From NCBI GenBank assembly GCA_030583665.1, contig CP129469.1, positions 2,843,043 through 2,907,042 of the forward strand: a stretch of DNA of 64,000 nt, given 5' to 3'. Shown here piece by piece: positions 29,875 to 58,703 of the stretch. Under the pieces are notes generated by a model that was not told the origin of the DNA, searched no databases, and worked only from the letters and a program-made list of their open reading frames with translations. Position 1 is the stretch's first letter. Every line of letters starts with the position of its first letter. The translations under genes and the position numbers were made by a program. The DNA comes from Candidatus Jettenia sp. AMX2. Lineage in GTDB: Bacteria > Planctomycetota > Brocadiia > Brocadiales > Brocadiaceae.

Positions 29875-32800
29875 TCATGAAACAAAATCAATGGTAATCA
29901 ATTTAAGTAATTCAGGATTATAAGGTGGAACTTCTTCCCTTTCCATAGATAACTTACCTTCAAGAAATTCTGATATCTCTCCAAGAAGTCTTTTCCAGCC
30001 CTTATGATTATTCTTATAATTTCTCCACGTGGTCCGCAACTTCTGAAGTCTCTTCTTGGTAAGGCTTATTGTCAACAATTTCCCTTTTGCCCCTTCCCAT
30101 TCCTCCTCAATTTTCTTGTCTTCAACAAAGTCAAGGAGATATTCATCCAGTCTTAAATCTATTTCTCTGATAAGCGTGGATACAAACTTCTTGCTTTTAT
30201 CAAAATTTAACTCGCTAAAGGCCGAATCTACTCTCTCTCGTTGCTCCACTTCCTTGTAAATTGCCTCTATCTCTTTAATTGTCTCTGAATTTAAATCATA
30301 AACCTTTTCAAAGAAATCGGGTATTTCTCTCACTTCTTCAGGCGGGCAGGAAATATAATCCAATATCTTTGTTTTATTGGTAATTTTTTCACCTTTTATG
30401 AGGTCGTAAAAAAACCAGAAGTGGAAATCATCACCATATTTATAATACAAAAACAGCCCCTTCATTCCTTTCTTGAGACCGCTGCATATCCCCAAAGGAA
30501 CAGATTTCAGTTCCTGTATAGCCCTTGCCTTTAGATAATCCTTTAATGGTTGATAAAATTTCTCACCGCCGCCAAAGACCTCTTTCTCTAATTCATCAAA
30601 TACGGTTGTGTCCTGTTCCCTTATCCTTCTTATAATACCAAACACCTTTGGATTAACCTCCTCTCCCAGCACAGTGACATCAAGCCCGACAGCATTATCT
30701 ATATTCCGAATTTTATTCTGAAGGACTTCTACAAGGCGCAAGAGGTCTTCCAGTTCTTCCTCTGGAAAGAAATTATATACAAAGATCTCCCTAAACGGAG
30801 AGCCAATCCTGTCAATCCTGCCCGCCCTTTGAATCATCCTGGTTGGATTCCAGTGTAAATCATAATTAATGAGATACCTGGCCTTTTGAAGGTTCATTCC
30901 CTCTGAAAGGACATCGGTACTCATAAGAATATTGATCTTCCCATTCATAAAGTCATTTACAATTTCTGTACGTCTGGAAGCGGAAGTTATTCTTCCGGAA
31001 ATCTTTTCAATACTTATTTTGGAAAATAAGGCATCTTCAGATATCTTCTCGTAAATGTAATCCAGGGTATCTGCGTAATAGGTAAAAATGACCACCTGTC
31101 CTTTTGAACTCAGTTCGAGTAATCTTTTTTTCAACTCTTTCAGTTTCGCATCGGCTTCCGCATCGATAGCTTCCACCTTTTTGCCCATCTCCTTAAAAAG
31201 AGATATATCCCTTTCTATATCCCTGAAAAGATCTTCTTTCCTGTAATCTTCGAGGTTCTTCTCCTCTAGTTCGTCAATAAAATCTTCAGCAGTTTCTTCG
31301 TCAAGGTTAGATACATATTTATAAAATGTCCTCTTGGTAAGGAACTTCCCCTTTTTCAGATATTCTTTAAATTTTTCCAGGAAATTTATATGATTTGAGA
31401 CACTCTTTCGAAATGCCTCAACACTGCTTTCGAGTCTCTTTAAAAGTATAGTCCTGAAAATACCTTCAAGCGCCACCATTCGCCCCAGAACCATTTCCTC
31501 GTCCTTAGATAGTTTTTCGGTCTTTCTGTACTCAAGCATACGGTAATATGCCATAGTCAATTGCTCGGTGATCATCCGGGATATATCCCGGTAAAGCCCC
31601 TGATATGCCTTATCGAGCTGATAATCGATATTTTTCAACACTCTTTCAGGAAATATAATCCTTTGCCCATTCACCTCCGCATCAGGATAGTTCTGTTTGA
31701 TATAGTCCCTCGTCCGCCTTATAGAAATCTCATTCATCAGATCATTGAGCAGGTTTGGGTCTTCTTCCCTATCAACGTCCTTGAAAAACTTAAAGAGATC
31801 TAATATGCCTTCCTTCATAAACGTTTTCTGGTCGTTAATGGTAAGAAGCATAATTTGCCAGTAAAGGTCCCATATCGTATTATTTATGGGTGTGGCGGTA
31901 AGGAAGAGGATATAGGGTCTTTCTCCCCCCTTTGTTATATGATCAGCTACCAGGGTAAAGAAATTCTCCCATCGGTTCGAAAGAGGATTCCTAAAATTGT
32001 GGCTTTCGTCTACCACGATTAAAGAGACCTCTGTCATGTCGCTACCAATAGCCTGCCTTGCTTTACTGAGAAAATCTTCAGTAGCAAGATCTTCCTGTGA
32101 TAGTATGCTTTCAGAAAGCAATAAGTCCTTAACTTCGTCTTTCCACATATTTCTTAATTGCGCCGGACAGACAATGAGGAACCTCTTTCTCTTGTAAAAA
32201 CCGAACTCCTCTATTATCTTTTTCGCAATCCATGTCTTACCCAAGCCTACTGAATCGGCTACCATACAGGCCTTGTATTTCTTTAATCGGGTAAATACTC
32301 TTCTTACGGCATCTTCCTGGAACTCTGTAAGATTCACTTTTGAAGAAGGCAGTGATTCTTCTTGTCCTTTTTTCTCTTCGTCTTCAAACATGATATCGTC
32401 TTTTTGAAGTTCATAAAGAGACTTTATATAAACCTCGTAAGGTGTGTATTCCCTCGTTCCAAACCGTGAAGCTTCAAGAATCCTGACAAGTTCGGCTTTA
32501 AAATCTACTGCCTCACTCCAGAATTTATCGAACCAATGTTCCCTCACATACTTAGCCTCTGCCTCAAGGGACACTGAATTGAGTTCTGTGTTATGAGTCA
32601 ACCCTGAAGGGGTAAAGTTTGATGAACCCACAACAATAAGCTGGTCAAAGATATAAGCCTTTCCGTGAAGAAATTCCTTATCATAGAGTTTTACCTCTAC
32701 GTTATTTTCGTTGAGAAAGCGTATAAATTCCTTGACGAGACTATCCTTTTCCTGAGAGAGATCAAATCCCTCAACCTCCTCCCGGATCATCTTCAAAAGC

Positions 32801-33021
32801 ACTTCGCCAAGGGTCGTTTCGTTTCTTATTTCCGGTGTCTTTCCAAGAAGCAGGCGAAATCGCTTCACACCTTGAATATTGTCTTTTATGAAAGCATAAG
32901 CCTGGATATTGAAGAAGGCTGTGGCAATATCGAACTTTGTATGGGGAATTTCCTTCAGGACATTGTTAAGGAAAGTAGATAACTTCACATCGCTATTATC
33001 TATAATCTTCTTGGGGATCAT
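29875..33021 (-). CDS. SNF2-family helicase with N-terminal phospholipase-D-like domain
   Basis: A 1,048-residue protein for DNA translocation, probably in phage defence. Residues about 1-175 form a PLD-like nuclease half-site with HGKAYIF (His119, Lys121) and VGSSNFTPSGL. From about 230 there is an SF2/SNF2 helicase: FQEDAVRRVF, Walker A ADSVGLGKTWIAKKI (near 259), motif II VVDESHNFRN, motif III FLTATPINN, and in the second lobe FTYYADTLDYI, ILMSTDVLSEGMNLQKA and motif VI MIQRAGRIDRIG. The tail is a helical region with coiled-coil character. The domain order resembles the DISARM helicase DrmD. The degenerate DUF433 gene precedes it, and a large methyltransferase gene lies further upstream on the same strand. 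Confidence 0.88.
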   Translation of the reverse strand: MIPKKIIDNSDVKLSTFLNNVLKEIPHTKFDIATAFFNIQAYAFIKDNIQGVKRFRLLLGKTPEIRNETTLGEVLLKMIREEVEGFDLSQEKDSLVKEFIRFLNENNVEVKLYDKEFLHGKAYIFDQLIVVGSSNFTPSGLTHNTELNSVSLEAEAKYVREHWFDKFWSEAVDFKAELVRILEASRFGTREYTPYEVYIKSLYELQKDDIMFEDEEKKGQEESLPSSKVNLTEFQEDAVRRVFTRLKKYKACMVADSVGLGKTWIAKKIIEEFGFYKRKRFLIVCPAQLRNMWKDEVKDLLLSESILSQEDLATEDFLSKARQAIGSDMTEVSLIVVDESHNFRNPLSNRWENFFTLVADHITKGGERPYILFLTATPINNTIWDLYWQIMLLTINDQKTFMKEGILDLFKFFKDVDREEDPNLLNDLMNEISIRRTRDYIKQNYPDAEVNGQRIIFPERVLKNIDYQLDKAYQGLYRDISRMITEQLTMAYYRMLEYRKTEKLSKDEEMVLGRMVALEGIFRTILLKRLESSVEAFRKSVSNHINFLEKFKEYLKKGKFLTKRTFYKYVSNLDEETAEDFIDELEEKNLEDYRKEDLFRDIERDISLFKEMGKKVEAIDAEADAKLKELKKRLLELSSKGQVVIFTYYADTLDYIYEKISEDALFSKISIEKISGRITSASRRTEIVNDFMNGKINILMSTDVLSEGMNLQKARYLINYDLHWNPTRMIQRAGRIDRIGSPFREIFVYNFFPEEELEDLLRLVEVLQNKIRNIDNAVGLDVTVLGEEVNPKVFGIIRRIREQDTTVFDELEKEVFGGGEKFYQPLKDYLKARAIQELKSVPLGICSGLKKGMKGLFLYYKYGDDFHFWFFYDLIKGEKITNKTKILDYISCPPEEVREIPDFFEKVYDLNSETIKEIEAIYKEVEQRERVDSAFSELNFDKSKKFVSTLIREIDLRLDEYLLDFVEDKKIEEEWEGAKGKLLTISLTKKRLQKLRTTWRNYKNNHKGWKRLLGEISEFLEGKLSMEREEVPPYNPELLKLITIDFVS

Positions 33022-33066
33022 GGCTCACTCGTTCTTTTTTCACCACTTATCGGCATACTGTAATGC

Positions 33067-33216
33067 CTAATGGATATCTTCTTGTTCCAAATCAGGGAAT
33101 GCCTTTAGGATTTCTTCTTCGGTCATACCGTCAGCAATCATACCCACAACAGTGGCAACTGGTATGCGAAGCCCACCCATCTGATTGGGTTTAACTGTAA
33201 TACGGGTAAATTTCAT
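33067..33216 (-). pseudogene. DUF433 antitoxin-like gene, decayed
   Basis: The minus-strand ATG 33216, with a very strong AAGGAGGTGAACAA site, opens MKFTRITVKPNQMGG followed by LRIPVATVVGMIADGMTEEEILKAFPDLEQEDIH and a TAG. From family knowledge, DUF433 proteins read MGGKPCIRG.RIPV here, so six residues (18 nt) appear to be missing. After the TAG the same frame continues ALQYADKW and stops at 33040-33042, which matches the usual DUF433 end; the TAG thus looks like a CAG-to-TAG change. Intact DUF433 proteins are antitoxins of PIN-like DUF5615 toxins; none is present. It lies just upstream of the helicase gene. Confidence 0.7.
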
Positions 33217-33306
33217 TTGTTCACCTCCTTATATAAATACAGCATCTTTAAATAATTTATATTTTTTATCTTATATACCAAAACTGTTGCTTTTTACAAA
33301 TATTTC

Positions 33307-33334
33307 TTGACAAATAAAGCAAATAAGGTAAAAA
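33307..33334 (+). promoter_or_regulatory. Promoter for a plus-strand noncoding RNA
   Basis: TTGACA at 33307-33312, a 16-bp spacer, then TAAAAA at 33329-33334. No coding gene follows on this strand. The predicted start, near 33341, is at the first hairpin of the structured region listed next. Confidence 0.5.
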
Positions 33335-33340
33335 TCATAA

Positions 33341-33520
33341 AAAGAGCGGTAAGACCGCTGTGGGTTCCTCTGGTGTTCCCTTCCGTAGGTTGGCAAAGCC
33401 AGAGGGTACGCACCCACAGGGTACGCTCAAACAAACAAATCATACAGAGAAAATTGTTCATCTACCAATCGCGGTAGAAGGATCTCGGGGGCCGCCTGAA
33501 AAGGCGGTCGCTGTTTTTTT
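33341..33520 (+). ncRNA. Candidate structured noncoding RNA, about 180 nt, family unknown
   Basis: Between a promoter and a terminator on the plus strand lies a GC-rich, strongly self-complementary stretch. Stems seen: AGCGGT/ACCGCT at the 5' end, GTGGGT/ACCCAC enclosing CCTCTGG/CCAGAGG, then CTACC/GGTAG, and a final GGCCGCCT-GAAA-AGGCGGTC with GCTGTTTTTTT. The 5' AGCG...ACCGC can also pair with 3' GCGGTCGCT to close the whole molecule. No open frame with a ribosome-binding site fits. Size and closed ends recall 6S RNA, but I could not match the 6S bubble or any riboswitch. It lies antisense-oriented inside a defence-like island. Confidence 0.5.
33490..33520 (+). terminator. Intrinsic terminator of the candidate ncRNA
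   Basis: GGCCGCCT and AGGCGGTC form a GC-rich stem with a GAAA loop; a seven-T run at 33514-33520 follows four bases after the stem. The T-run overlaps the stop of the convergent gene at 33519. Confidence 0.8.
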
Positions 33521-34010
33521 AGAACCTGCTTTCATACTTCCTTTTCAAATCATTTTTCTTCCATAACTCCACATAAAATGCAGTGACCCAATAGAAAACA
33601 TTTTTCTTCCTCTGCAAGATAAGAGCATAATGATACTCTTCTAGCCATATATACGTCCGCAGACCTTTATCGGCAGTACCTTCCCGATATTGCCAAACCT
33701 TGATTTCATGCCTTTCAGGGCTCTCCATTAAAGGCTTTGCCCACGAAAGCCGTTTCGCTCTTGGATAATCAATAATTCTCTCATTGGTATTATTGTCGAA
33801 ACGGCTCACCATATGCCAGAATCCTTCTTCCTTTCCCAACCCACCAACCTCAATAGTGTCGTTATAGATTACCTTAATGCCCCGACGATATGTCAGTGAT
33901 TTTTTGAAGTCTTTTTCAAACGCTGAATACAAGCGGCCAAGTACGGTATTCCAGTCACCATCGAGATCAAGCATTGGTGGAAGAAATGATGGCGTGTCAC
34001 TCATTAACAA
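33519..34010 (-). CDS. Possible BECR-fold (barnase-EndoU-colicin-RelE-like) nuclease
   Basis: A 163-residue soluble protein, tentatively placed. The C-terminal half has the look of phage-type BECR toxin domains: DYPRAKRLSWAKPLMESPERHEIKVWQY, TYIWLEEYHYALILQRKK and VFYWVTAFYVELWKK, an R..R..W..P block followed by strand-rich segments ending in a TAFYV strand. Charged Arg, His and Lys residues that could act in RNA cleavage are present. Its start overlaps the end of the DUF3800 gene by 7 bp, so the two are translationally coupled. It could be a toxin or an effector of the neighbouring island. The family call comes from pattern memory and needs a profile search. Confidence 0.45.
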   Translation of the reverse strand: MLMSDTPSFLPPMLDLDGDWNTVLGRLYSAFEKDFKKSLTYRRGIKVIYNDTIEVGGLGKEEGFWHMVSRFDNNTNERIIDYPRAKRLSWAKPLMESPERHEIKVWQYREGTADKGLRTYIWLEEYHYALILQRKKNVFYWVTAFYVELWKKNDLKRKYESRF

Positions 34011-34702
34011 ACCTCCGATGGAGTAAAAATAAACAAGTTGAACTTATCAACCCAGGGAGGACTTGTGCGGCTTAAATCCTGGCCAGTATGGTTCATGATA
34101 CTTTCTACAACATTCTTCTTCGTTACATTGGCAGAAAGATTGCGATTGTAATAGCTAATCGCTCCGATAAACAAATCTGCCAATTGCAATATCTCTGACT
34201 CATGGGAATGGATATTCTGAATATTCCCGATCATTTGCTGAGTAAAATCATAGACATTATTGCATAAAATATCTTTCAGGTTAGCCAGTTTCTGTGCGCT
34301 TCTGGTATCTTTGATATCCAGATATATATTGTAGCGATGTTCAGGTTTTAAGATATTGCGGAGCATATAAAAATACATCTTATAATAGAATGACTCGTGG
34401 CTTCCCTGATTGAAGTAGTCATGATTTAATTTTGATTTTTCATCTACCACAAGGCATCTGAAGTTAAGCGAAGGTGTTTTAAAAAAATATTCCACGAACT
34501 CAAGGAATAACTCATGTCGAGATTTGGAGACCCTTACCCACTTAATTTCACCACGTGCCTTTTGTCTGTTCTTTATCTCACGAATCTGCTCGGAAATCTT
34601 TTTAACATCCTTTTTAGGACACCACATCCCCCCTACAACCATGATCGGCTGTTTGTCATGTTCGAGATGACAGCTTTCGTCGCAATAAATATTGTAGTCC
34701 AT
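34004..34702 (-). CDS. DUF3800 family protein (RNase H-like fold)
   Basis: A 232-residue protein with the DUF3800 hallmarks: an N-terminal acidic strand YNIYCDESCHLEH, a middle VDEKSKL and YNIYLDIKDTRS, and near the C-terminus ESEILQLADLFIGAISYYN, the D/E residues of an RNase-H-like metal site. Members are common in phage-defence and mobile islands and are presumed nucleases. It starts at ATG 34702 and overlaps the next gene (possible BECR nuclease) by 7 bp. A 205-residue gene precedes it by 211 bp. The pairing suggests a two-gene defence or toxin-antitoxin module. Confidence 0.75.
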   Translation of the reverse strand: MDYNIYCDESCHLEHDKQPIMVVGGMWCPKKDVKKISEQIREIKNRQKARGEIKWVRVSKSRHELFLEFVEYFFKTPSLNFRCLVVDEKSKLNHDYFNQGSHESFYYKMYFYMLRNILKPEHRYNIYLDIKDTRSAQKLANLKDILCNNVYDFTQQMIGNIQNIHSHESEILQLADLFIGAISYYNRNLSANVTKKNVVESIMNHTGQDLSRTSPPWVDKFNLFIFTPSEVC

Positions 34703-34913
34703 TATGATTTTACCCCTTTAGAGTTTATTTCACACACTCCTTGCCTTTAACATAAAACCGTCACTTTCGTCAAGGTACAGACAAAGCATTATTCAGATTG
34801 CCTGCCCTCTTTCTCATTCATAATTCCTTGATTTTTTATACCCTTCACAACATTGAAGATAACATTTGCTGAATGCTTAAAATTCGTTCTGGAGAGAGTT
34901 TTCCAATATGAAC

Positions 34914-35627
34914 TCACTGGTCAATAAGCTTTTTAGCATCTTCATCCTTTTGAAGGACATCATTAGATTTTACAAACATTTGACAATATACCTTTATCAT
35001 ATTTGCCATTGCAATCATTATAAGTTTCATCGTAGCGAAACACAGGGCTTTTTGAATCTCTGAGGTTTCTGCATTACCTACCTGCTGAGCGCTTTGACAT
35101 CCAGAATGGGCATATATGCATAAATAGCTATAAAAATGTTTAGCGAGAATTTCGCTCAAACCAGCGGAGATACCTATGTTCGTCCATGACTGAAAGCTCC
35201 ATTCTCCCTTAAGTAATTTCTTTTTTTTCTCTTTATCAAATTGCTTAAAGACACTGTTATTGTTAATCTTTTCCTTCAAAGCATCCATGATTTTCTTTTC
35301 ATTGGCAAGCTGGTTTTTACCTTCCTCAGATCGCGATGGGAATTTTTGTCTGTCGTTGTAGCTTGCATGAAGCCATAAGTAATACCTGAAATCTTTTTCA
35401 TCATCTGACCGAGGTTCTATGAAAACATAGTGGAAAACCAAGAATGCCTCAAGCGCAGCCCTGCCTAAAACATTTATCGATCCAGGATCGAAGAAGCTGA
35501 TCCCTTTATCTGTAACCTTGACACCTGGCAAGGTCGCACTTCCAAAAAGACACAGTGTCGATGCAGCATGCCCAATGAATTTTTTATAAAGCCCTTCAGC
35601 CTCTAGTAACCGATCGTCCGGAATGTG
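34914..35627 (-). pseudogene. 5'-truncated gene, DUF5677-like helical protein
   Basis: The minus-strand frame is open from 35627, right after an in-frame TGA, to 34914. The translated start (IPDDRLLEAEGLYKKFIGHAA) is clearly protein-like but has no start codon; the first TTG is at 35531, inside a continuous helix. So the true 5' end seems lost. Just upstream lie TGTCAATGAAAATTAGACA and a transposase tail. The protein is all-helical, with FLVFHYVFIEP, YYLWLHASYNDRQ and SYLCIYAHSGC, as in DUF5677-type proteins thought to be HEPN-related. It may still be translated as 205 residues from TTG 35531. Confidence 0.55.
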
Positions 35628-35666
35628 TCAATGAAAATTAGACATTTTTTTAAAGAATTTAGACTC

Positions 35667-35765
35667 TCATGATAGTGTATTTTCCCGTTTTGGTTGATTA
35701 ATCCATGCAGCCTGTGGTAAACGTGGAGGTTCAGGTACTTTTCCCTTGAACCGTTCCGGGTGGTT
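35667..35765 (-). pseudogene. Transposase C-terminal fragment
   Basis: Thirty-two codons and a stop reading NHPERFKGKVPEPPRLPQAA WINQPKRENTLS. The P-E-R-F...P..P..P...WIN.P pattern is the usual tail of DDE integrase-core transposases (IS3/IS481-like). The remainder is absent; a CAATTCATGAATTG palindrome abuts the 5' edge. The nearby TGTCAATGAAAATTAGACA (about 35625-35643) may be the element's terminal repeat. Confidence 0.65.
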
Positions 35766-35795
35766 TGTAGACGCAATTCATGAATTGCGTCTACA
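35766..35795. repeat. CAATTCATGAATTG palindrome, copy 2
   Basis: Perfect 30-bp palindrome, arms TGTAGACG/CGTCTACA. It sits between the transposase fragment and the stop codon of the methyltransferase gene. Confidence 0.9.
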
Positions 35796-35799
35796 GATA

Positions 35800-38700
35800 T
35801 TATACAGACCGTGCCTTGTCCAGCCTGTTTTTTACCAACTCACACACTGCCCAATATACCTCATTGCGCTCGTCCTGCGTCAGGCCGATGATGTCGAATA
35901 CTACATCATCTAAAGCCTTACGGTCGGGAAGTGGATTGGGTTTTTGTTCACGGATGGGGTGAGCAGAGTTAATGCCGAGTTCTTCGAAAGCGTCTTTTAT
36001 TTCCCGTGCAAACATTATTTCGAATGACTTTATGAACTTGTCTTGTTCATCGCATGAGAAAGCCTCTGGGGCTATAACAAGATACTGAACAATATCGACA
36101 CCCTCATTCTTTATTGGACCAGAACCACCGCCATAAGCCCTGCCAAAGAGTTCCTTAATGAATATCAACAAGGTAGAAGTGGCCTGACCGGCAAGGTTTT
36201 CACTTGAACCTTGAACTTTTGGAATAATCTCAAAGAAATTATGATCAACTTCACAACCATCAGAATTGAAATGGACATTGTGACGTCTGGCATGCATCAT
36301 GGCCCAGATTAGTTTGCTGTTTCTGTGTTCCTTTATCTGCCACCAGGGATTTCTTGCTTTAAGCGTAGAACCAAAATTGAACTTTTGTTTTTCTCCAAAC
36401 TTGATGTATTGTTGAACACCAGTGCTTTTTTTCTTCCCCTCTGTATTGCAGAAGAATATTAGGTTCTTCAGATCCTTAGCTTGAAAGGCGATCTTAGTTA
36501 GATCGCGGGGAGAAATAATGGCTGGCCTTAGATACTCCTCTTCAATTCTCATCTTCTCTGGCAGCCCTTCATGTTTTGGTATAAGCTCATAATATTTTCC
36601 ATCTTTCCTTATATCGAAATGCTTACTGGGAAGATAAAAATACTCATTGCACCCTGTTTTGATTCCGAACCTTACTTCTGCAATATCCCTAAGCCTTACC
36701 AGCTTGCCTTTGCCTTTCTCAAGGATCGTAAAGAATATATCCGGCGCCCGGAGGTATTTGCCGCCCCATTTGTTTCCTTCATATTTTCCCGTCAGAAATT
36801 TATCTTTTATCAATGTCTTTTGCTTCGGTTTTTGTAGATGCAATTCATGAATTGCATCTACATCTTCCGGATATTCCCATCCTTCTTCCAAAAGGACCTC
36901 CTGCTTTACAGGAAAGACCCGGTATGCATCGGTCTTTACTATGTCCTTTGCATTCTCTATTTCAAGGAGGTTTTTTGTGTTGATTACCTCTTTAAATGGT
37001 CGTTTGAACATCACGAACCTCGCCGTGTTTTGTAGGGGCAATTCATGAATTGCCCCTACATTCGGCGTACTGAAAAGGGCAATGATGGTGTTTACGTCAG
37101 CATGTTCGAAACTTCGCTTTGACTGATTGTCATATATGGCTTTAATATGGCAGTACTTTAAGAGAAATTCCTGAAGGTCTTTGCCATAGCCCACGTCGAG
37201 CCATGAGTTGGAGGTGATGAAACAGAATGTGCCTTTGTCGTTAAGGAGCGCCATTCCATTGAAATAAAAGTAGATGTAGTAGTCGCTTTTCTTGTCAATC
37301 TTTTGTATGCAAGGAAAATGCGCATGAACGGAGTCAAAAAGCCTTTCCTTGTATTCCCTCTTGTCTTCCAGTGTTACCTCTGCTTTTAATTTATTGGGGG
37401 GCGCTATCTTCTCCTGCCGTACATACGGCGGGTTGCCGATAACGATATCAAAGCCGCCCTTGTCTCCAAAAATCTCTGCAAAGTCAATATCCCATACAAA
37501 GGGTTTGTGGCCTGGTTCCTTAATCTTTCTTTTCACCTCTTTTATCTCTTCGATTTTTTGTTCTAAAATCTTTATTTGCTCTTCAACAAGTCCTTTTTGT
37601 TCGAATTCTTCCTTTGCGCCTCCATCGATCCAGCTACATTGCACTGGTATCTTTTCGGTTTCAAGTGTCTGAATCTTCTTTCTATAAGTTATGACCTTGT
37701 CATCCAGTATTTCAGTAAAAACCCTGAATTCTTCCTGAATGAGGGATTTTGGGCCCTTGAATTTGGCAGTTGAATCATTATTGTAATATTTCTCTTTTTC
37801 GGTCTTAAGGGACAAGAGCTTTCTTTTTAAAGAGGGGGAAATTTCCATGTCCTTCACACGGAGGCTTATGCCTTCCACCTTTTGAACCAGAGAATCACCC
37901 ACACGCAGTTTCAAATCAAGGTTAGGAAGCAAGGGATGCAGTTTTCTCTGTTCCGGAGGGATATCTGCATCAATGATAAGCTGTAACCACAGCCTGAGTT
38001 CAGCCGAATGAACCGCCCAGGGCATGATGTCCACACCATAAAGGGCGACTCCGATAATCCTTTTCTTAAGTTCAAACTCGGTCATCTCTCTGTGGATATG
38101 GCTGTAAATGAGCCTATAGAGTTCTACGAGAACATGGAGCATACCCACCAGAAATGCGCCGCTTCCGCAGGCAGGGTCAATCACTGCCAGATTATCGAGT
38201 ATCTCTTCAAGGCGATACCAGAGGTTGTGTTTCGTAATGTAAGCCTCAACTTCTTTTTTATCTTCATCGAACAGGAGCCTGTAAATCCATTCCTTTGGTA
38301 GGGGCAGGTCAAATCCCCCCTCGCCCCCCTTTTGTAAAGGGGGGATGGGGAGATTTAGGTGATTGGTAAGGTATTCTACCAGCGACCGCTTGCACATGAA
38401 GTCAACCTCTGTTGTTGGAGTATAGAAAATCCCCATGTCCTGCCTTTCGTATATCTCCTCGGCCACATTGGAGAGGGATTCATAGACATACCCGATCATC
38501 TGCGGGTCAACGGCAACCTCAATATCTAAAGGGAGTTCTTCGCGAATGGTAAAATTGTATTGCTCAAGGAAAACGAATATCTCTTCAAAAAGATTGTCGC
38601 TGATTTTGAAAGGTAAATCATCCAGGTCACTTCTCCGGAAGAGTCCTCCGTTCAGATAGGGCGCAGAAGCGAGAATTGCCTCAATATCCTTTGGGTGGTA

Positions 38701-39525
38701 AGAAGGATGGCTATACTGATTATTAAATGCCTCAAGGAAGAGTACCCTGAGCCATTTTTCATAAAATGAGTCAGCCTGTACATTACCATACCGCCTTTCT
38801 TCCTTATACCTTTGCCAGTACCACCTGATGAACTTAAGGTCATTATTGAGCCATCTCTTTTTAGAGATGAAGTAGAGGAACATGAGCCTGTTCAGAAATT
38901 GCTGGGAAAGTTCATGGGCATCCTTTACTGATATTCCCTGATTCTTAAATGTTTCTCTAAGTTTAAAAAATGCCTTTTTGTATTCATCAAAAAACCTATC
39001 GGTAACCTTCTCAACGCTGAAGGCGTCCCTCCACCGGCGCCAGATATCCCGCCAGTTTTCTTCTTCGCCGGTAAGGGCAAGATTGGAAATGGTAAGAAGG
39101 TCTGTGTGGTACGTATTTTCCCTATCAAGAATAAGCCTGGTTAGTTTAAGCTTATGCTTACCTTCCTCAATACGTTCAAATTCAGGAAAGATAAACGTGT
39201 ATTCTTTGTAATCTGCAGTGAGGATAAGAAGGAAATTCAAATATCTATCTGAAAGGCGTTTTGCGAGGTATCGGACAAGAGGGGTAGAGAAGGTTTTGGT
39301 CTCAATCAGGAATATCTGAAGCTTGCTGTCGTAGTTAAAAACGGTAAAGATATCTTTAACCTTCTCCCCCTCTTCCCTGGCAAAGTCGAACTCCTCTATC
39401 TTTCTTTTATAGGTAGGGTCAAGCAACTTACCGTCTGGATATCCAAGGAGACGAAAGAGATCATAGATTTTTTCGGGTGAATTTATCGCGGGAACCGATT
39501 CCAGGACAACATCTTTTATGGCCAC
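35800..39525 (-). CDS. Large adenine-specific methyltransferase / Type IIG-like restriction protein
   Basis: A 1,241-residue protein of the Eco57I/PglX/DrmMI kind. The N-terminal region has IFLIETKTFSTP (Glu75, Lys77), like the E-x-K of a PD-(D/E)xK nuclease. Methyltransferase motif I is VIDPACGSGAFLVGM near residue 447, and motif IV is IVIGNPPYVRQEK near 697, an N6-adenine signature. The C-terminal part probably recognises DNA. The start is GTG 39525 with CTGGAGAAACACG before it. Oddity: three repeat units lie inside the frame, two CAATTCATGAATTG palindromes (giving GAIHELPLQ and DAIHELHLQ) and one CCCCCTT...AAGGGGGG unit (giving PIPPLQKGGEGGFDLPLP). None breaks the frame. It may cooperate with the PLD-SNF2 helicase downstream. 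Confidence 0.85.
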   Translation of the reverse strand: MAIKDVVLESVPAINSPEKIYDLFRLLGYPDGKLLDPTYKRKIEEFDFAREEGEKVKDIFTVFNYDSKLQIFLIETKTFSTPLVRYLAKRLSDRYLNFLLILTADYKEYTFIFPEFERIEEGKHKLKLTRLILDRENTYHTDLLTISNLALTGEEENWRDIWRRWRDAFSVEKVTDRFFDEYKKAFFKLRETFKNQGISVKDAHELSQQFLNRLMFLYFISKKRWLNNDLKFIRWYWQRYKEERRYGNVQADSFYEKWLRVLFLEAFNNQYSHPSYHPKDIEAILASAPYLNGGLFRRSDLDDLPFKISDNLFEEIFVFLEQYNFTIREELPLDIEVAVDPQMIGYVYESLSNVAEEIYERQDMGIFYTPTTEVDFMCKRSLVEYLTNHLNLPIPPLQKGGEGGFDLPLPKEWIYRLLFDEDKKEVEAYITKHNLWYRLEEILDNLAVIDPACGSGAFLVGMLHVLVELYRLIYSHIHREMTEFELKKRIIGVALYGVDIMPWAVHSAELRLWLQLIIDADIPPEQRKLHPLLPNLDLKLRVGDSLVQKVEGISLRVKDMEISPSLKRKLLSLKTEKEKYYNNDSTAKFKGPKSLIQEEFRVFTEILDDKVITYRKKIQTLETEKIPVQCSWIDGGAKEEFEQKGLVEEQIKILEQKIEEIKEVKRKIKEPGHKPFVWDIDFAEIFGDKGGFDIVIGNPPYVRQEKIAPPNKLKAEVTLEDKREYKERLFDSVHAHFPCIQKIDKKSDYYIYFYFNGMALLNDKGTFCFITSNSWLDVGYGKDLQEFLLKYCHIKAIYDNQSKRSFEHADVNTIIALFSTPNVGAIHELPLQNTARFVMFKRPFKEVINTKNLLEIENAKDIVKTDAYRVFPVKQEVLLEEGWEYPEDVDAIHELHLQKPKQKTLIKDKFLTGKYEGNKWGGKYLRAPDIFFTILEKGKGKLVRLRDIAEVRFGIKTGCNEYFYLPSKHFDIRKDGKYYELIPKHEGLPEKMRIEEEYLRPAIISPRDLTKIAFQAKDLKNLIFFCNTEGKKKSTGVQQYIKFGEKQKFNFGSTLKARNPWWQIKEHRNSKLIWAMMHARRHNVHFNSDGCEVDHNFFEIIPKVQGSSENLAGQATSTLLIFIKELFGRAYGGGSGPIKNEGVDIVQYLVIAPEAFSCDEQDKFIKSFEIMFAREIKDAFEELGINSAHPIREQKPNPLPDRKALDDVVFDIIGLTQDERNEVYWAVCELVKNRLDKARSV
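36833..36862. repeat. CAATTCATGAATTG palindrome, copy 3, in frame in the methyltransferase gene
   Basis: Perfect 30-bp palindrome with arms TGTAGATG/CATCTACA, translated as part of DVDAIHELHLQKP. Confidence 0.92.
37031..37060. repeat. CAATTCATGAATTG palindrome, copy 4, in frame in the methyltransferase gene
   Basis: Perfect 30-bp palindrome with arms TGTAGGGG/CCCCTACA, translated as NVGAIHELPLQN. Confidence 0.92.
38311..38356. repeat. GC-rich AAATCCCCCC...GGGGGGA repeat, in frame in the methyltransferase gene
   Basis: The plus strand reads AAATCCCCCCTCGCCCCCCT, then TTTGTAAAGGGGGGATGGGG and AGATTT. It resembles the GGGGGATTTAGGGG repeat near 20931 and adds LNLPIPPLQKGGEGGFDL to the protein. 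Confidence 0.75.
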
Positions 39526-52657: not shown

Positions 52658-53560
52658 CTATTCTTTCTTTGAAGGGTGTAAATACACAAACCAATAAGCG
52701 CCTGCAATTAATGCAATGCCTCCGAATAAATTTCCAAGGACAACCGGAAACAGATTATCAATCAAAAATCCTTTGAAACAGGTGAGATTTGAAAGGTCTG
52801 GCGTTCCACCATGTATCATTTCAGCAGCAGCAAGTACTGCGCTATCTCCTTTTAGAGCAATTCCCATAGGGATAAGCCACATATTAACAACACAATGCTC
52901 GAATCCACAGGCCATAAGGCACGATACAGGCCATAGTAATGCCAGTATTTTATCGATAGTACTTCTTCCACAGTAGCACATCCAGACACCAAGACATAGT
53001 AAGGCGTTACCCATCACTCCCTGTATAAAGACAACACCTGGTGGTGTATTTACTTTATCATTGGCCATAAGGACTATTTTAGCGCCCAGCAGATGATTGT
53101 TCGTCATCCACAGATCAGAATTGTATATCAATACAACAATAGTTAATGCACCAACAAAATTACCAACGAACGCAATAATCAAATTCCTTGTAAGGGCCTG
53201 GCCTGTAATTTTCTTAGCCATAAAAGACATCACGACAAGACAATTTCCATTAAAGAGTTCGGCACCGGTAATTACAACTAAAACCATTGATAACGTGAAG
53301 GCTATACCACCAATAAGTTGATATAAACCAAAATTTGATGTTGCTGTATGCGTTACTACTATAAAGAGTTGCGTACCAAGTGCGATAAAGATGCCAGCAA
53401 GTATACTAAGGAAAAGCATCGTTAACGTATCAGGACTTGTCTTTGCAACACCCACCAGTGCTACTTTTTCAGACATTTCTGTTGGTCTATAAGTATCAAT
53501 TTCAATTACTGGTGATGCGGGATATTTTTGATCCTCCCCATTATTCAATATATCAGACAT
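52658..53560 (-). CDS. FocA/NirC-type formate/nitrite channel, first copy
   Basis: A 300-residue six-helix anion channel, paralogue of the gene 14 bp downstream. Seen: LAGIFIALGTQLFIVV, VITGAELFNGNCLVVMSF, FVGNFVGALTIVVLIY, GNALLCLGVWMCY, and GFEHCVVNMWLIPMGI with the pore His. A polar N-terminal extension of about 45 residues is present. It starts 25 bp after the antiporter gene, so all three form one operon. In anammox bacteria several FocA/NirC copies serve nitrite uptake; that is family knowledge and may or may not apply here. Confidence 0.93.
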   Translation of the reverse strand: MSDILNNGEDQKYPASPVIEIDTYRPTEMSEKVALVGVAKTSPDTLTMLFLSILAGIFIALGTQLFIVVTHTATSNFGLYQLIGGIAFTLSMVLVVITGAELFNGNCLVVMSFMAKKITGQALTRNLIIAFVGNFVGALTIVVLIYNSDLWMTNNHLLGAKIVLMANDKVNTPPGVVFIQGVMGNALLCLGVWMCYCGRSTIDKILALLWPVSCLMACGFEHCVVNMWLIPMGIALKGDSAVLAAAEMIHGGTPDLSNLTCFKGFLIDNLFPVVLGNLFGGIALIAGAYWFVYLHPSKKE

Positions 53561-53585: not shown

Positions 53586-55583
53586 TTATTTTTTAAGTTC
53601 TTCAAAAATCCCATTCTCTATTTCCAATAAATCCTCCTCTTCTACGGGCATAAACCATTTTTGTGCGATAAAGGTAGGAATAACAGCACTTGCAATAACA
53701 ACTCCGACAAGGATTGAATACTGCACTTGATTGATATATCCGGCGTTCAATCCAAAAACACTTGCAATAGTGCCAAAAGTAAGACCGGTACTCATGAGAA
53801 GCGTCGTGTACATGCTACCCTGGGGGATATATCTTTTAGCCAGGAAATATACACCGATAAATTTGGTGACTATTTTCACTGCAAAGAGAATCAGAAACAG
53901 TCCAAGAGCAGAGAGAATGAGAGGTAATGAAATCTTTAATCCTCCTACTACAAAAAATATTGGCGTGATAAATGCATATGCTACCGTCTTCAGCCGGTTG
54001 TGTACTTTTTTTGTTCCTGATGTTTCCGTAAAGTGTTTAGACATAAAAAGCCCCAGAGCAAAAGCAGGCAACACCGCATGTCCAGCCCCCAAGTCGGCAA
54101 AATATATAACGATAATTAATAGGAGAAAAAGATATTTTATTTCTGGTTCTATGACTTTATTTTTCAGTTTCGGATTATGAAAAACATAGTGGGAAAATTT
54201 TGTAGCGCCAAAAATAACAACAATCGAAATTATGATAAAAATTACCGTATAAAAAGTTGGTTTTACAAAGAGAATACTCAATACTAAGGCAGTTCCCATA
54301 TCAGTAATAAAAGTAGACGCCATGAGCAATTTACCGATATGGGTCCTGGATAGTCCCGTTTCAACTAATACCGAATAAACTACTGCTAATGATGTTGTTG
54401 ATAAAGCTGTACCGGCGATTAAAGACGCCTGCAATGACCAATGAGAAACATAATACGTATAAAGCGTTACTCCGGTAAATGGGGCTAAAAAAGAAAAGAA
54501 ACCTATTAAGAAGCTTTCTTTAAATTTTTCTTTCATAAGTGGTATATCAATTTCTGTTCCGGATAAGAAGGTTAAAATGATTCCTCCCAGGCCAGCTACA
54601 TGTATCATCCAATCCTCAGCACGTAATCCCAGATTCCCGGCTACAGCACCTAAAAGGATCTCTATGATAGCCACCGAAAAGCCGGTGTATAAGGAAATCA
54701 GGCTGGCAAGAAATATAATAGTACCTACAAACAAAGGTATTATATTTGCTTTTTCTAAGAGTTGCTTCAGGTTTAGATTTTGAAATAAAGTGTACGGAGT
54801 GGTTAGGGGGGTTACAGAAGAAGGAGTAACAGAACTTTCATTATGTACTATCTTTCCGGTAGAATCGTTGAATCTGTTTTTATAGAGCACTTCGCCCTTC
54901 TTTGCATCAACATACACTAACCAGATTTTATCAACAGGATCTTCTTGTGAAAAAAGTATCTTCCATGCTAACATTTGGTTATTGCCTCTGGGAAGAATTA
55001 CCAGTTCTGACACTGTTTTTTGAGTCAATGGCAAATTAAGAGCCAAAGCCTTTTTTGCCCTCCGAACTGCATCATTTTTTTCTATTGACGGTTTTGTATT
55101 AATCTTAACATTGTGGATGCTGCGATTTCTTCTTAGAGAGAAGATATAATTTTTCTCTGATACACATACGGAGATATTGGCACCGATAATTGGCATCCCC
55201 TTATAATATTGCTGAAATACAATCCGTTTGCCGAATGGCGCTTCTATGACCTCTCTTACCTGAAAATTTTCCAAGTCTGAACTCAGGCCAAAAAGCCCGT
55301 GATATAACGACAAAAACTCTTTTGCAGCATCCTGCGGCTTCCCCTGAAACACCTTACTCCTCGCACCAAATACCCTTATTGCTGTCCCTGTTTCCTTATC
55401 CCATACAACCCTCCAATTGGGATTATCCTCTGTCTTTAACTTTACCAGGAAAGATTCCGGTAAATCCTGTCCACTTGCTAAAGACAGGCAAAGGATTATC
55501 AGAATGCCTAAAGACAGAATGAATGTATTAAAGATATTCCAAACTTTAACTTTCTTTCCTACAAATTGCGTTAATAAAAACAT
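53586..55583 (-). CDS. CPA2-type cation/proton antiporter fused to a FTP/PepSY peptidase-propeptide-like domain
   Basis: A 665-residue fusion. Residues about 14-37 are a membrane or signal helix. About 40-240 look like the FTP and PepSY domains of M4-metallopeptidase propeptides (FQGKPQDAAKEFLSLYHGLFGLSSDLENFQVREV, KRIVFQQYYKGMPIIGANIS, DKIWLVYVDAKKGEVLYKN), with no peptidase following. From about 270 a KefB/NhaS-like CPA2 antiporter follows (GLRAEDWMIHVAGLGGIILTFLSGTEID, ALSTTSLAVVYSVL, GAGHAVLPAFALGLFMSK, TPIFFVVGGLKISLP). There is no C-terminal RCK domain. The FTP part should be on the outer side. It lies 193 bp after the truncated dynamin-like gene and 25 bp before focA. CPA2 antiporters are among genes known under fluoride-riboswitch control. 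Confidence 0.85.
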   Translation of the reverse strand: MFLLTQFVGKKVKVWNIFNTFILSLGILIILCLSLASGQDLPESFLVKLKTEDNPNWRVVWDKETGTAIRVFGARSKVFQGKPQDAAKEFLSLYHGLFGLSSDLENFQVREVIEAPFGKRIVFQQYYKGMPIIGANISVCVSEKNYIFSLRRNRSIHNVKINTKPSIEKNDAVRRAKKALALNLPLTQKTVSELVILPRGNNQMLAWKILFSQEDPVDKIWLVYVDAKKGEVLYKNRFNDSTGKIVHNESSVTPSSVTPLTTPYTLFQNLNLKQLLEKANIIPLFVGTIIFLASLISLYTGFSVAIIEILLGAVAGNLGLRAEDWMIHVAGLGGIILTFLSGTEIDIPLMKEKFKESFLIGFFSFLAPFTGVTLYTYYVSHWSLQASLIAGTALSTTSLAVVYSVLVETGLSRTHIGKLLMASTFITDMGTALVLSILFVKPTFYTVIFIIISIVVIFGATKFSHYVFHNPKLKNKVIEPEIKYLFLLLIIVIYFADLGAGHAVLPAFALGLFMSKHFTETSGTKKVHNRLKTVAYAFITPIFFVVGGLKISLPLILSALGLFLILFAVKIVTKFIGVYFLAKRYIPQGSMYTTLLMSTGLTFGTIASVFGLNAGYINQVQYSILVGVVIASAVIPTFIAQKWFMPVEEEDLLEIENGIFEELKK

Positions 55584-55776: not shown

Positions 55777-56364
55777 TTATATATTTTTGAGTTCTGTAAT
55801 GGGAGCCATCGTACCCGATTGATTTTTGTGAAATTTTAAGTTGACCCGCAGTTCATCACGATTTATTGTAAGCAGGATGATCTCCTCGGTTAATTCTTGT
55901 GAAATTTCAAGCTGACCCATAGATATTTCAAAAATTATTTCCGTTGCTGTTTTAAACTCATAAAAGATATCGTTAGATTGTTTTAAGAAGCGGTGAATAG
56001 TTTCCTTGATACTGTTCGAAATTATTTTCTCCTCGTTTCTTCTGAATCCGGCGAATACATTGATAATTTCATTGTCGATAACCTTTTGCATTTTTCTTCT
56101 AAAATCCTTTAGATTAGTAACCGGGTCTTTTTCATAAATATTAAAGAGGAGATGCTTTATCCTTTGTATTTCTTCGAAATTTTTTAATGTTTCCTCCGCA
56201 TGTACACATACTATATCTAATTCGTTCTTGAGAATAGCCAAACTATCTCCTATATCTTGTTTTAGGTGTGTAGCAAGATGACAGAAGGTATCTATTTTAT
56301 TCTCCAGTTCTTTTACAGAAACTTTTGATATTTTTGTCATAATAATACCAACAATCTCTTCCAT
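55777..56364 (-). CDS. Dynamin-stalk-like protein lacking a GTPase domain
   Basis: A 195-residue helical protein, homologous by eye to the middle (about 285-450) of the dynamin-like GTPase encoded upstream: VSVKELENKIDTFCHLATHL KQD against EEDLEKKINTFHKLVANLKQD, NSIKETIHRFLKQSNDIFYEFKTATEIIFE against GSIQETFRRFTKRSNDILHEFKTAAEILFE. G1-G4 motifs are absent. The start is ATG 56364 with GGGAGGAATAAAC; a frame extension to 56397 is ignored. Its leader carries two fluoride-riboswitch aptamers. It could bind the full GTPase and modulate its assembly, or be a decaying duplicate; its own ribosome-binding site and regulation favour function. Confidence 0.75.
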   Translation of the reverse strand: MEEIVGIIMTKISKVSVKELENKIDTFCHLATHLKQDIGDSLAILKNELDIVCVHAEETLKNFEEIQRIKHLLFNIYEKDPVTNLKDFRRKMQKVIDNEIINVFAGFRRNEEKIISNSIKETIHRFLKQSNDIFYEFKTATEIIFEISMGQLEISQELTEEIILLTINRDELRVNLKFHKNQSGTMAPITELKNI

Positions 56365-56371
56365 GTTTATT

Positions 56372-56471
56372 CCTCCCGTAAATTTAACCGAAAACATTGT
56401 TCTGCGGTTTATAATGCTAATTTACATAGGAGTTATCAGCTATCATTAGCAGTTAGGCGAACTCCATCGCC
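56372..56471 (-). promoter_or_regulatory. Fluoride riboswitch, second of tandem pair, translational type
   Basis: The minus-strand aptamer (56471 to 56425) reads GGCGATGGAGTTCGCC, then a GCTAATGATAGC stem-loop, then TGATAACTCCTATG, matching the crcB motif. No U-run terminator follows. Instead the 3' strand CTCC plus GTAAATT (56419-56425) can pair with AATTTAC and the GGAGG ribosome-binding site at 56372-56384. Without fluoride this would hide the start of the dynamin-stalk-like gene. Confidence 0.8.
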
Positions 56472-56518: not shown

Positions 56519-56597
56519 TAAAAAAACTCCTATTGAAGAAATTCTTCAACAGGAGTTATCAGCTACAGTGGTAGCAACCGGGGTGAACTCCATCACC
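56519..56597 (-). promoter_or_regulatory. Fluoride riboswitch, first of tandem pair, with intrinsic terminator
   Basis: Aptamer 56597 to 56551: GGTGATGGAGTTCACC, a GCTACCACTGTAGC stem-loop and TGATAACTCCTG, as in the crcB motif. Its 3' ACTCC also opens a terminator hairpin, AACTCCTGTTGAAG/CTTCAATAGGAGTT, with TTTTTTT. Fluoride binding should keep ACTCC in the aptamer and allow read-through. Confidence 0.9.
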
Positions 56598-58625: not shown

Positions 58626-58703
58626 TAAAAAAACTCCTGTCGAAGAAAACCTTCAACAGGAGTTATCAGCTATGTGATAGCAATTGAGGTGAACTCCATC
58701 ACC
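58626..58703 (-). promoter_or_regulatory. Fluoride riboswitch upstream of the dynamin-like gene
   Basis: Aptamer 58703 to 58658: GGTGATGGAGTTCACC, a GCTATCACATAGC stem-loop, TGATAACTCCTG. The ACTCC strand begins the terminator AACTCCTGTTGAAGG/CTTCGACAGGAGTT with TTTTTTT. This is the usual ON-switch layout of the crcB motif. Confidence 0.92.

What the first reader, a model, noticed from the sequence alone, without database searches (positions are those of the whole stretch)
53586..55583. Antiporter fused to a peptidase-propeptide (FTP/PepSY) domain
FTP and PepSY domains normally inhibit M4 peptidases. Here they sit, without a peptidase, in front of a complete CPA2 antiporter in one reading frame. 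They could act as an extracytoplasmic sensor, inhibitor or anchor for the transporter. I do not know of a described case.
Basis: partly seen in the sequence, partly recalled or inferred. Interest (0 to 1): 0.7.

Follow-up and report, generated by a model that had tools for sequence, protein, structure and literature searches.

The report
Peptidase propeptide fused to ion antiporter
In one anammox bacterium the secreted front part of a lost protein-cutting enzyme has been joined in frame, at the antiporter's own start codon, to a complete cation/proton antiporter, giving a membrane transporter with an unusual outward-facing domain whose role is unknown.

Summary
The 665-aa ORF (minus strand, 53586-55583) is one reading frame with a signal peptide, a full FTP-PepSY propeptide and a complete 13-helix CPA2 antiporter. 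It is best read as a lineage-specific domain swap. Residues 1 to ~272 are ~50% identical to the propeptide, plus the first catalytic-domain strands, of full M4/M36-type peptidases in other genera of the family. Residues 277-665 start at the initiator of a stand-alone antiporter, 65-78% identical to versions in Methanoperedens, Deltaproteobacteria, Chloroflexi and others. The host is anammox and has no M4_C catalytic domain left. The fusion was not seen in the other 61 genomes of the order or in about 350 more of the phylum. It stands 25 bp before two FNT (nitrite/formate) genes in an otherwise conserved locus. An assembly chimera is unlikely. Most likely it is a working electroneutral antiporter carrying a tethered extracytoplasmic propeptide that supplies the secretion signal; regulation by that domain is possible but unshown. 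So far a singleton architecture, not a family.

The parts
53586..55583 (-). Whole fusion gene, 665 aa + stop
55470..55583 (-). Residues 1-38: signal peptide (positive n-region KKVK, hydrophobic helix 14-36, ...LASG), retained from the M4 peptidase ancestor
54849..55469 (-). Residues 39-245: FTP-PepSY propeptide, homologous to M4 propeptides of the family and to thermolysin's propeptide
55143..55268 (-). FTP match (residues 106-147), sub-threshold on its own
54882..55085 (-). PepSY match (residues 167-234), above Pfam cut-off
54768..54857 (-). Residues 243-272: remnant of the start of the M4 catalytic domain (TGKIVHN...PLTTP...NLNL, cf. TGDVYRENPLTTP...LNNL)
54756..54767 (-). Fusion junction (residues 273-276), between the end of M4 homology and the second residue of the stand-alone antiporters (...LEKANIIPL vs MKADIIPL); the antiporter's own ATG is gone
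53604..54755 (-). Residues 277-660: complete 13-TM CPA2 antiporter; T427-D428 sits at NapA D156-D157, K574 at NapA K305
52658..53560 (-). FNT1, formate/nitrite transporter, starts 25 bp after the fusion's stop codon
51750..52643 (-). FNT2, second formate/nitrite transporter, 14 bp after FNT1
55777..56397 (-). Dynamin-like fragment upstream (partial duplicate of the dynamin gene without its GTPase domain); marks the conserved locus in which the fusion stands

Best explanation
A lineage-specific gene fusion. In this anammox species (or its recent ancestors) the catalytic domain of a secreted M4/M36-type metallopeptidase was lost, and its signal peptide, FTP-PepSY propeptide and first ~30 catalytic-domain residues were joined in frame to the start of a (probably horizontally acquired) stand-alone CPA2 antiporter. 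The signal peptide sends the propeptide across the membrane (inferred), and the antiporter's N-out, 13-helix topology leaves it tethered on the outer face (predicted). [quoted passage not shown] It is placed to be co-transcribed with two nitrite/formate channels, so it plausibly balances H+ or cations around anion uptake (inferred). The propeptide most likely serves as retained leader and tether; a regulatory contact with the antiporter is possible, not shown. The confidence below is for the fusion and its anatomy; the function of the N-domain is split among the rivals.
For: One uninterrupted ORF. N-part ~50% identical to M4 propeptides in 9 same-family genomes, signal peptide included. C-part begins at the initiator of some 50 stand-alone antiporters and nests among Deltaproteobacteria, Methanoperedens and Nitrospinota copies rather than with the order's own copy in G033. 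No M4_C domain left in the genome. Dynamin and FNT genes follow each other without an antiporter in G005, G010 and G020, so the fusion looks inserted. Both halves share G+C with each other (0.38/0.37) and with neighbours. 13 TM, NapA-like, Z 37.5; loop charges give 10 K/R on the predicted inner side against 3 on the outer (counted); KefC, same fold, is 13-TM with N outside (PMC11150392). No start codon at the old initiator: first candidates are TTG 284 and GTG 304, inside TM1 and TM2. At positions invariant in 8 M4 propeptides the fusion keeps 38/51 hydrophobic residues, like an outgroup M4 peptidase (39/51). FNT1 starts 25 bp downstream with no terminator-like site in the gap.
Against: Seen in a single genome: no relative independently confirms the joint. 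An open frame alone does not prove that the N-domain is under selection, since the downstream antiporter keeps it open. The propeptide diverged faster than expected (53% to genera g9/g11, which are ~71% to each other, while dynamin is 76-78% in all three comparisons), so constraint may be relaxed. The N-domain model is low-confidence. Transport activity and ion are inferred only; 8 of 36 stand-alone relatives even lack the key Asp.
Confidence: 0.8

Rival explanations
1. Regulated transporter: the tethered FTP-PepSY domain senses an extracytoplasmic signal or binds the outer face of the antiporter and switches transport, as PepSY-type domains act on other partners (YpeB on SleB; YycH/YycI on WalK).
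For: PepSY-containing YpeB acts on a non-M4 partner (PMC6660665); YycH/YycI act on a membrane kinase (PMC7355866). Hydrophobic core positions are conserved after the fusion as in a working propeptide, with only a few short length differences. Topology puts the domain next to the outer side of the antiporter.
Against: Only one genome, so no coevolution signal. Faster evolution than in the M4 peptidases. A poorly modelled linker lies between the two domains. No ligand known.
Confidence: 0.25
2. Passive remnant: the propeptide contributes only ribosome-binding site and signal peptide; the folded domain is clipped off or drifts, and the antiporter works as in its stand-alone relatives.
For: Relative-rate excess on the fusion branch. 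The antiporter needs no such partner in some 50 stand-alone relatives. Fusion confined to one genome.
Against: M4-invariant residues are kept nearly as often as in an outgroup peptidase, and there is no large in-frame deletion despite free opportunity.
Confidence: 0.45
3. Assembly or binning chimera joining an M4 gene of one organism with an antiporter gene of another.
For: The joint is absent from the same-genus genome G001 and from all other genomes searched.
Against: Single-contig 3.46-Mb genome, 99.99% complete. In-frame joint at the antiporter initiator. Homogeneous G+C. No leftover M4 catalytic part and no second antiporter copy of this type in the genome. Family-type synteny on both sides.
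Confidence: 0.05
4. Internal translation start: the ORF makes mostly a short stand-alone-like antiporter and the N-part is not attached.
For: TTG 284 and GTG 304 exist near TM1.
Against: No evident ribosome-binding site before them and the ancestral ATG is gone; starting there would cut TM1.
Confidence: 0.05

Closest known systems
M4/M36-type secreted metallopeptidases with FTP-PepSY propeptide (thermolysin 5A3Y; L003 of the same family)
   Same: Signal peptide, FTP, PepSY and run-in to the first catalytic strands; ~50% identity to family copies, profile E 7e-8 to the thermolysin propeptide
   Different: Whole catalytic domain, including HEYGH, replaced by an antiporter
CPA2 antiporter NapA (4BWZ/5BZ2)
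   Same: 13-TM fold, Z 37.5; Asp at D157 and Lys at K305
   Different: D156 is Thr, so predicted electroneutral; carries a ~270-residue N-terminal extracytoplasmic domain
KefC/KefB K+/H+ exchangers
   Same: 13 TM, N-out, non-acidic residue before the key Asp; an antiporter with a regulatory domain is an established idea
   Different: Kef has a C-terminal cytoplasmic RCK domain; here the extra domain is N-terminal and extracytoplasmic, and there is no RCK
Stand-alone antiporters of Methanoperedens, Deltaproteobacteria GWC2_42_11 and others
   Same: 65-78% identical over the whole transport domain
   Different: They start at MKADIIPL or similar with no N-terminal domain
YpeB, TseB and YycH/YycI
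   Same: Extracytoplasmic domains of PepSY or propeptide-like type on a membrane anchor, acting on non-M4 partners
   Different: Separate proteins, not fused to a transporter; the YycI match here is only E 0.017

Membership tests
FTP-PepSY propeptide (PF07504 + PF03413) | Profile match to PepSY | tested here: met
   26.4 bits against cut-off 24
FTP-PepSY propeptide (PF07504 + PF03413) | Profile match to FTP | tested here: inconclusive
   18.7 bits against cut-off 21; homology to M4 propeptides carries it
M4 metallopeptidase | HExxH catalytic domain | tested here: not met
   Absent from the protein; M4_C absent from the whole genome
CPA2 antiporter | Na_H_Exchanger / CPA2 profile | tested here: met
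   PF00999 E 7.6e-36; TIGR00932 E 3.4e-24 but below its curated cut-off
CPA2 antiporter | NhaA/NapA fold with 13 TM | tested here: met
   AlphaFold model, NapA Z 37.5, residues 277-645
CPA2 antiporter | Essential Asp (NapA D157) and TM-10 Lys (NapA K305) | tested here: met
   D428 and K574 by profile alignment
Electrogenic CPA2 (NapA/NhaA clades) | Acidic residue at CPA-motif position 6 (NapA D156) | tested here: not met
   T427, invariant in 37 sequences; rule from PMC6181914
Kef system | C-terminal RCK/TrkA-N domain | tested here: not met
   Protein ends ~20 residues after the last helix; no Pfam hit there
CPA2 antiporter | Measured cation/H+ exchange | not testable with these tools
   Needs a vesicle or complementation assay

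The most novel reading that the evidence does not exclude
A new kind of transporter control: a peptidase propeptide, freed from its peptidase, has become an extracytoplasmic gate or sensor of a cation/H+ antiporter that works together with nitrite/formate channels in an anammox bacterium.
Probability: 0.2. Interest if true: 0.65.

Novelty: new variant of a known kind. Interest (0 to 1): 0.42.

Why it matters
It is a clean case of domain replacement: both parents are identified, the joint is resolved to a few codons, and parent-type genes survive in relatives. It shows a propeptide, usually tied to its own peptidase, surviving on an unrelated membrane protein. If the domain controls the antiporter, it would be a new way to regulate cation/H+ exchange from outside the membrane, in an organism group where ion balance across several membranes is an open question.

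Tried and rejected
Apparent N-terminal matches in two Omnitrophota loci (L041 from residue 213, L046 from residue 152) are spurious: those stretches are unrelated upstream sequence or genes, and the antiporters start at MSADI/MNADV. The 598-aa antiporter of G033 (L002/L135) has an N-terminal extension of ~200 residues, but it matches no FTP/PepSY profile, so it is not the same fusion. The N-domain alone, folded from one sequence, is too poor (pLDDT 50.6) to interpret; Foldseek's first two hits were YpeB (5BOI) and an Aspergillus metalloproteinase chain (4K90_B), E 4e-3 and 3e-2 with low TM-scores, which I do not count as evidence. Neighbours of the stand-alone antiporters show no FNT link and no strongly recurrent partner, so the FNT association is local. 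Ion selectivity from the TM4 residues (T396 T397 S398 L399) is ambiguous and not claimed. Plasmid records hold only antiporter-domain matches under 60% identity.

Full report
Observation. The gene lies on the minus strand at 53586-55583 and encodes 665 residues without interruption. Pfam finds PepSY (167-234, above cut-off), FTP (106-147, slightly below cut-off) and Na_H_Exchanger (289-637). The N-terminus aligns with the propeptide of pre-pro-thermolysin: E 2.5e-4 alone, E 7e-8 as a profile with family members. No peptidase domain follows.

Parent 1, the peptidase. Nine genomes of the same family carry a protein of ~680-715 residues (one shorter, 488) whose first ~260 residues are 46-52% identical to this N-terminus. 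The example L003 has FTP, M4, M4_C and M36 matches and an HEYGH motif. Alignment shows that similarity runs through signal peptide and propeptide and on into the first strands of the catalytic domain (window TGKIVHN...PLTTP...NLNL; relatives TGDVYRENPLTTP...LNNL), then stops near residue 272. The window's genome has no M4_C domain and its only match to the full peptidase is this propeptide. In G002 and G023 the peptidase gene sits beside a gene whose start looks like an ammonium transporter (from memory of the family, not tested) and a second secreted-looking gene; the counterpart of that second gene in the same-genus genome G001 is a TPR protein. G001 has that neighbourhood but lacks this peptidase.

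Parent 2, the antiporter. Residues 278-660 are mostly 65-78% identical to stand-alone ~380-400-residue antiporters of Methanoperedens, Deltaproteobacteria, Nitrospinota, Chloroflexi, Phycisphaerales and others. These start M-[KRN]-A-D-I-I-P-L or similar; the window reads E-K-A-N-I-I-P-L, so the fusion took the antiporter from its second residue. In a tree the window copy sits inside this multi-phylum set, while the copy of G033 from the same order falls outside with strong support, though on a long branch. Transfer is the simplest reading; differential loss is not excluded, and the nearest row (L032, support 91/71) is not firmly placed.

Place in the genome. The genome carries hydrazine synthase alpha (two copies), so it is an anammox bacterium. 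In G005, G010 and G020 the dynamin-like gene and the FNT gene(s) lie close together (with a dynamin fragment in G010) without an antiporter. In the window the fusion stands between the dynamin fragment and FNT1, 25 bp before FNT1, which is 14 bp before FNT2, with no terminator-like site in the gap. This arrangement suggests co-transcription; it was not measured. In Kuenenia focA_3 and focA_4, a tandem pair, were barely expressed under the conditions tested (PMC7438415), and I infer from map position that they may be the counterpart.

Is the joint real? For: single-contig genome, both halves and neighbours similar in G+C, a junction in frame at the antiporter initiator, no leftover halves elsewhere, and family-type genes on both sides. 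Against: no second genome shows it, among 62 of the order and 392 sampled from the phylum (overlapping sets). I put the chance of an artefact at about 5%.

Topology and mechanism. The model gives a signal helix (14-36), a mixed alpha/beta domain of low confidence, and 13 transmembrane helices of good confidence. Residues 277-645 match NapA 3-376 (Z 37.5). The N-out orientation follows from the 13-helix fold (KefC is described as N-outside) and from the loop charges (10 positive inside, 3 outside, counted). The propeptide is therefore predicted on the outer face of whichever membrane holds the protein; which anammox membrane that is cannot be told. D428 and K574 stand at the functional NapA positions D157 and K305, while D156 is replaced by Thr. 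By the published CPA motif rule a CPA2 without acid at that position should be electroneutral (PMC6181914). Ion identity is open.

What does the N-domain do? Its M4-invariant hydrophobic positions are kept as often as in an outgroup peptidase (38/51 against 39/51), which suggests it still folds. Yet it has changed faster than expected: 53% to genera that are ~71% to each other, against 76-78% for the dynamin gene among the same genera. An open frame is no evidence in itself, because the downstream antiporter requires it. The balance favours a leader and tether, with regulation as a live alternative.

Novelty. No paper found in the held library describes a PepSY domain on an antiporter; that library lacks most subscription journals. 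Both parts are known families, and regulatory domains on antiporters are known, so this is a new architecture of a known kind, so far a singleton.

Noticed in passing
L128 2533-4290 (G005); G033 C32:14130-15702: In G005 the two neighbouring FNT genes are fused into one 585-residue ORF; G033 also has an FNT open frame of 595 residues. Possible tandem FNT fusions in anammox relatives.
   Followed up: no
window 56525-56557 and 58632-58664; 55777-56397: Near-identical stem-loop with T-tail precedes both the dynamin gene and the dynamin fragment, pointing to a tandem duplication followed by loss of the GTPase half; similar fragments are also present in G010, G015 and G023.
   Followed up: partly
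L135 3077-4873 (G033): A related antiporter (51%) carries a different ~200-residue N-terminal extension with a hydrophobic, Cys-containing start and no Pfam match, and lies next to the HEAT-repeat gene orthologue: a possible second, independent N-terminal addition to this antiporter type.
   Followed up: partly
L056, L059, L062, L064, L070, L074, L075 (Asn) and L054 (Glu), column of window residue 428: Eight of 36 stand-alone relatives lack the Asp thought essential for CPA antiporters, having Asn or Glu instead, though otherwise conserved.
   Followed up: no
window 29875-39525: Eco57I-type restriction-modification methylase (1241 aa), PLD-helicase (1048 aa), DUF3800 and DUF5677 genes: a likely defence island.
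   Followed up: no
L127 11945-12023 (G001): In G001 the TPR gene and the mnmA-like gene are only ~78 bp apart where G002 has the M4 peptidase, suggesting a clean loss of the peptidase gene in this genus.
   Followed up: partly
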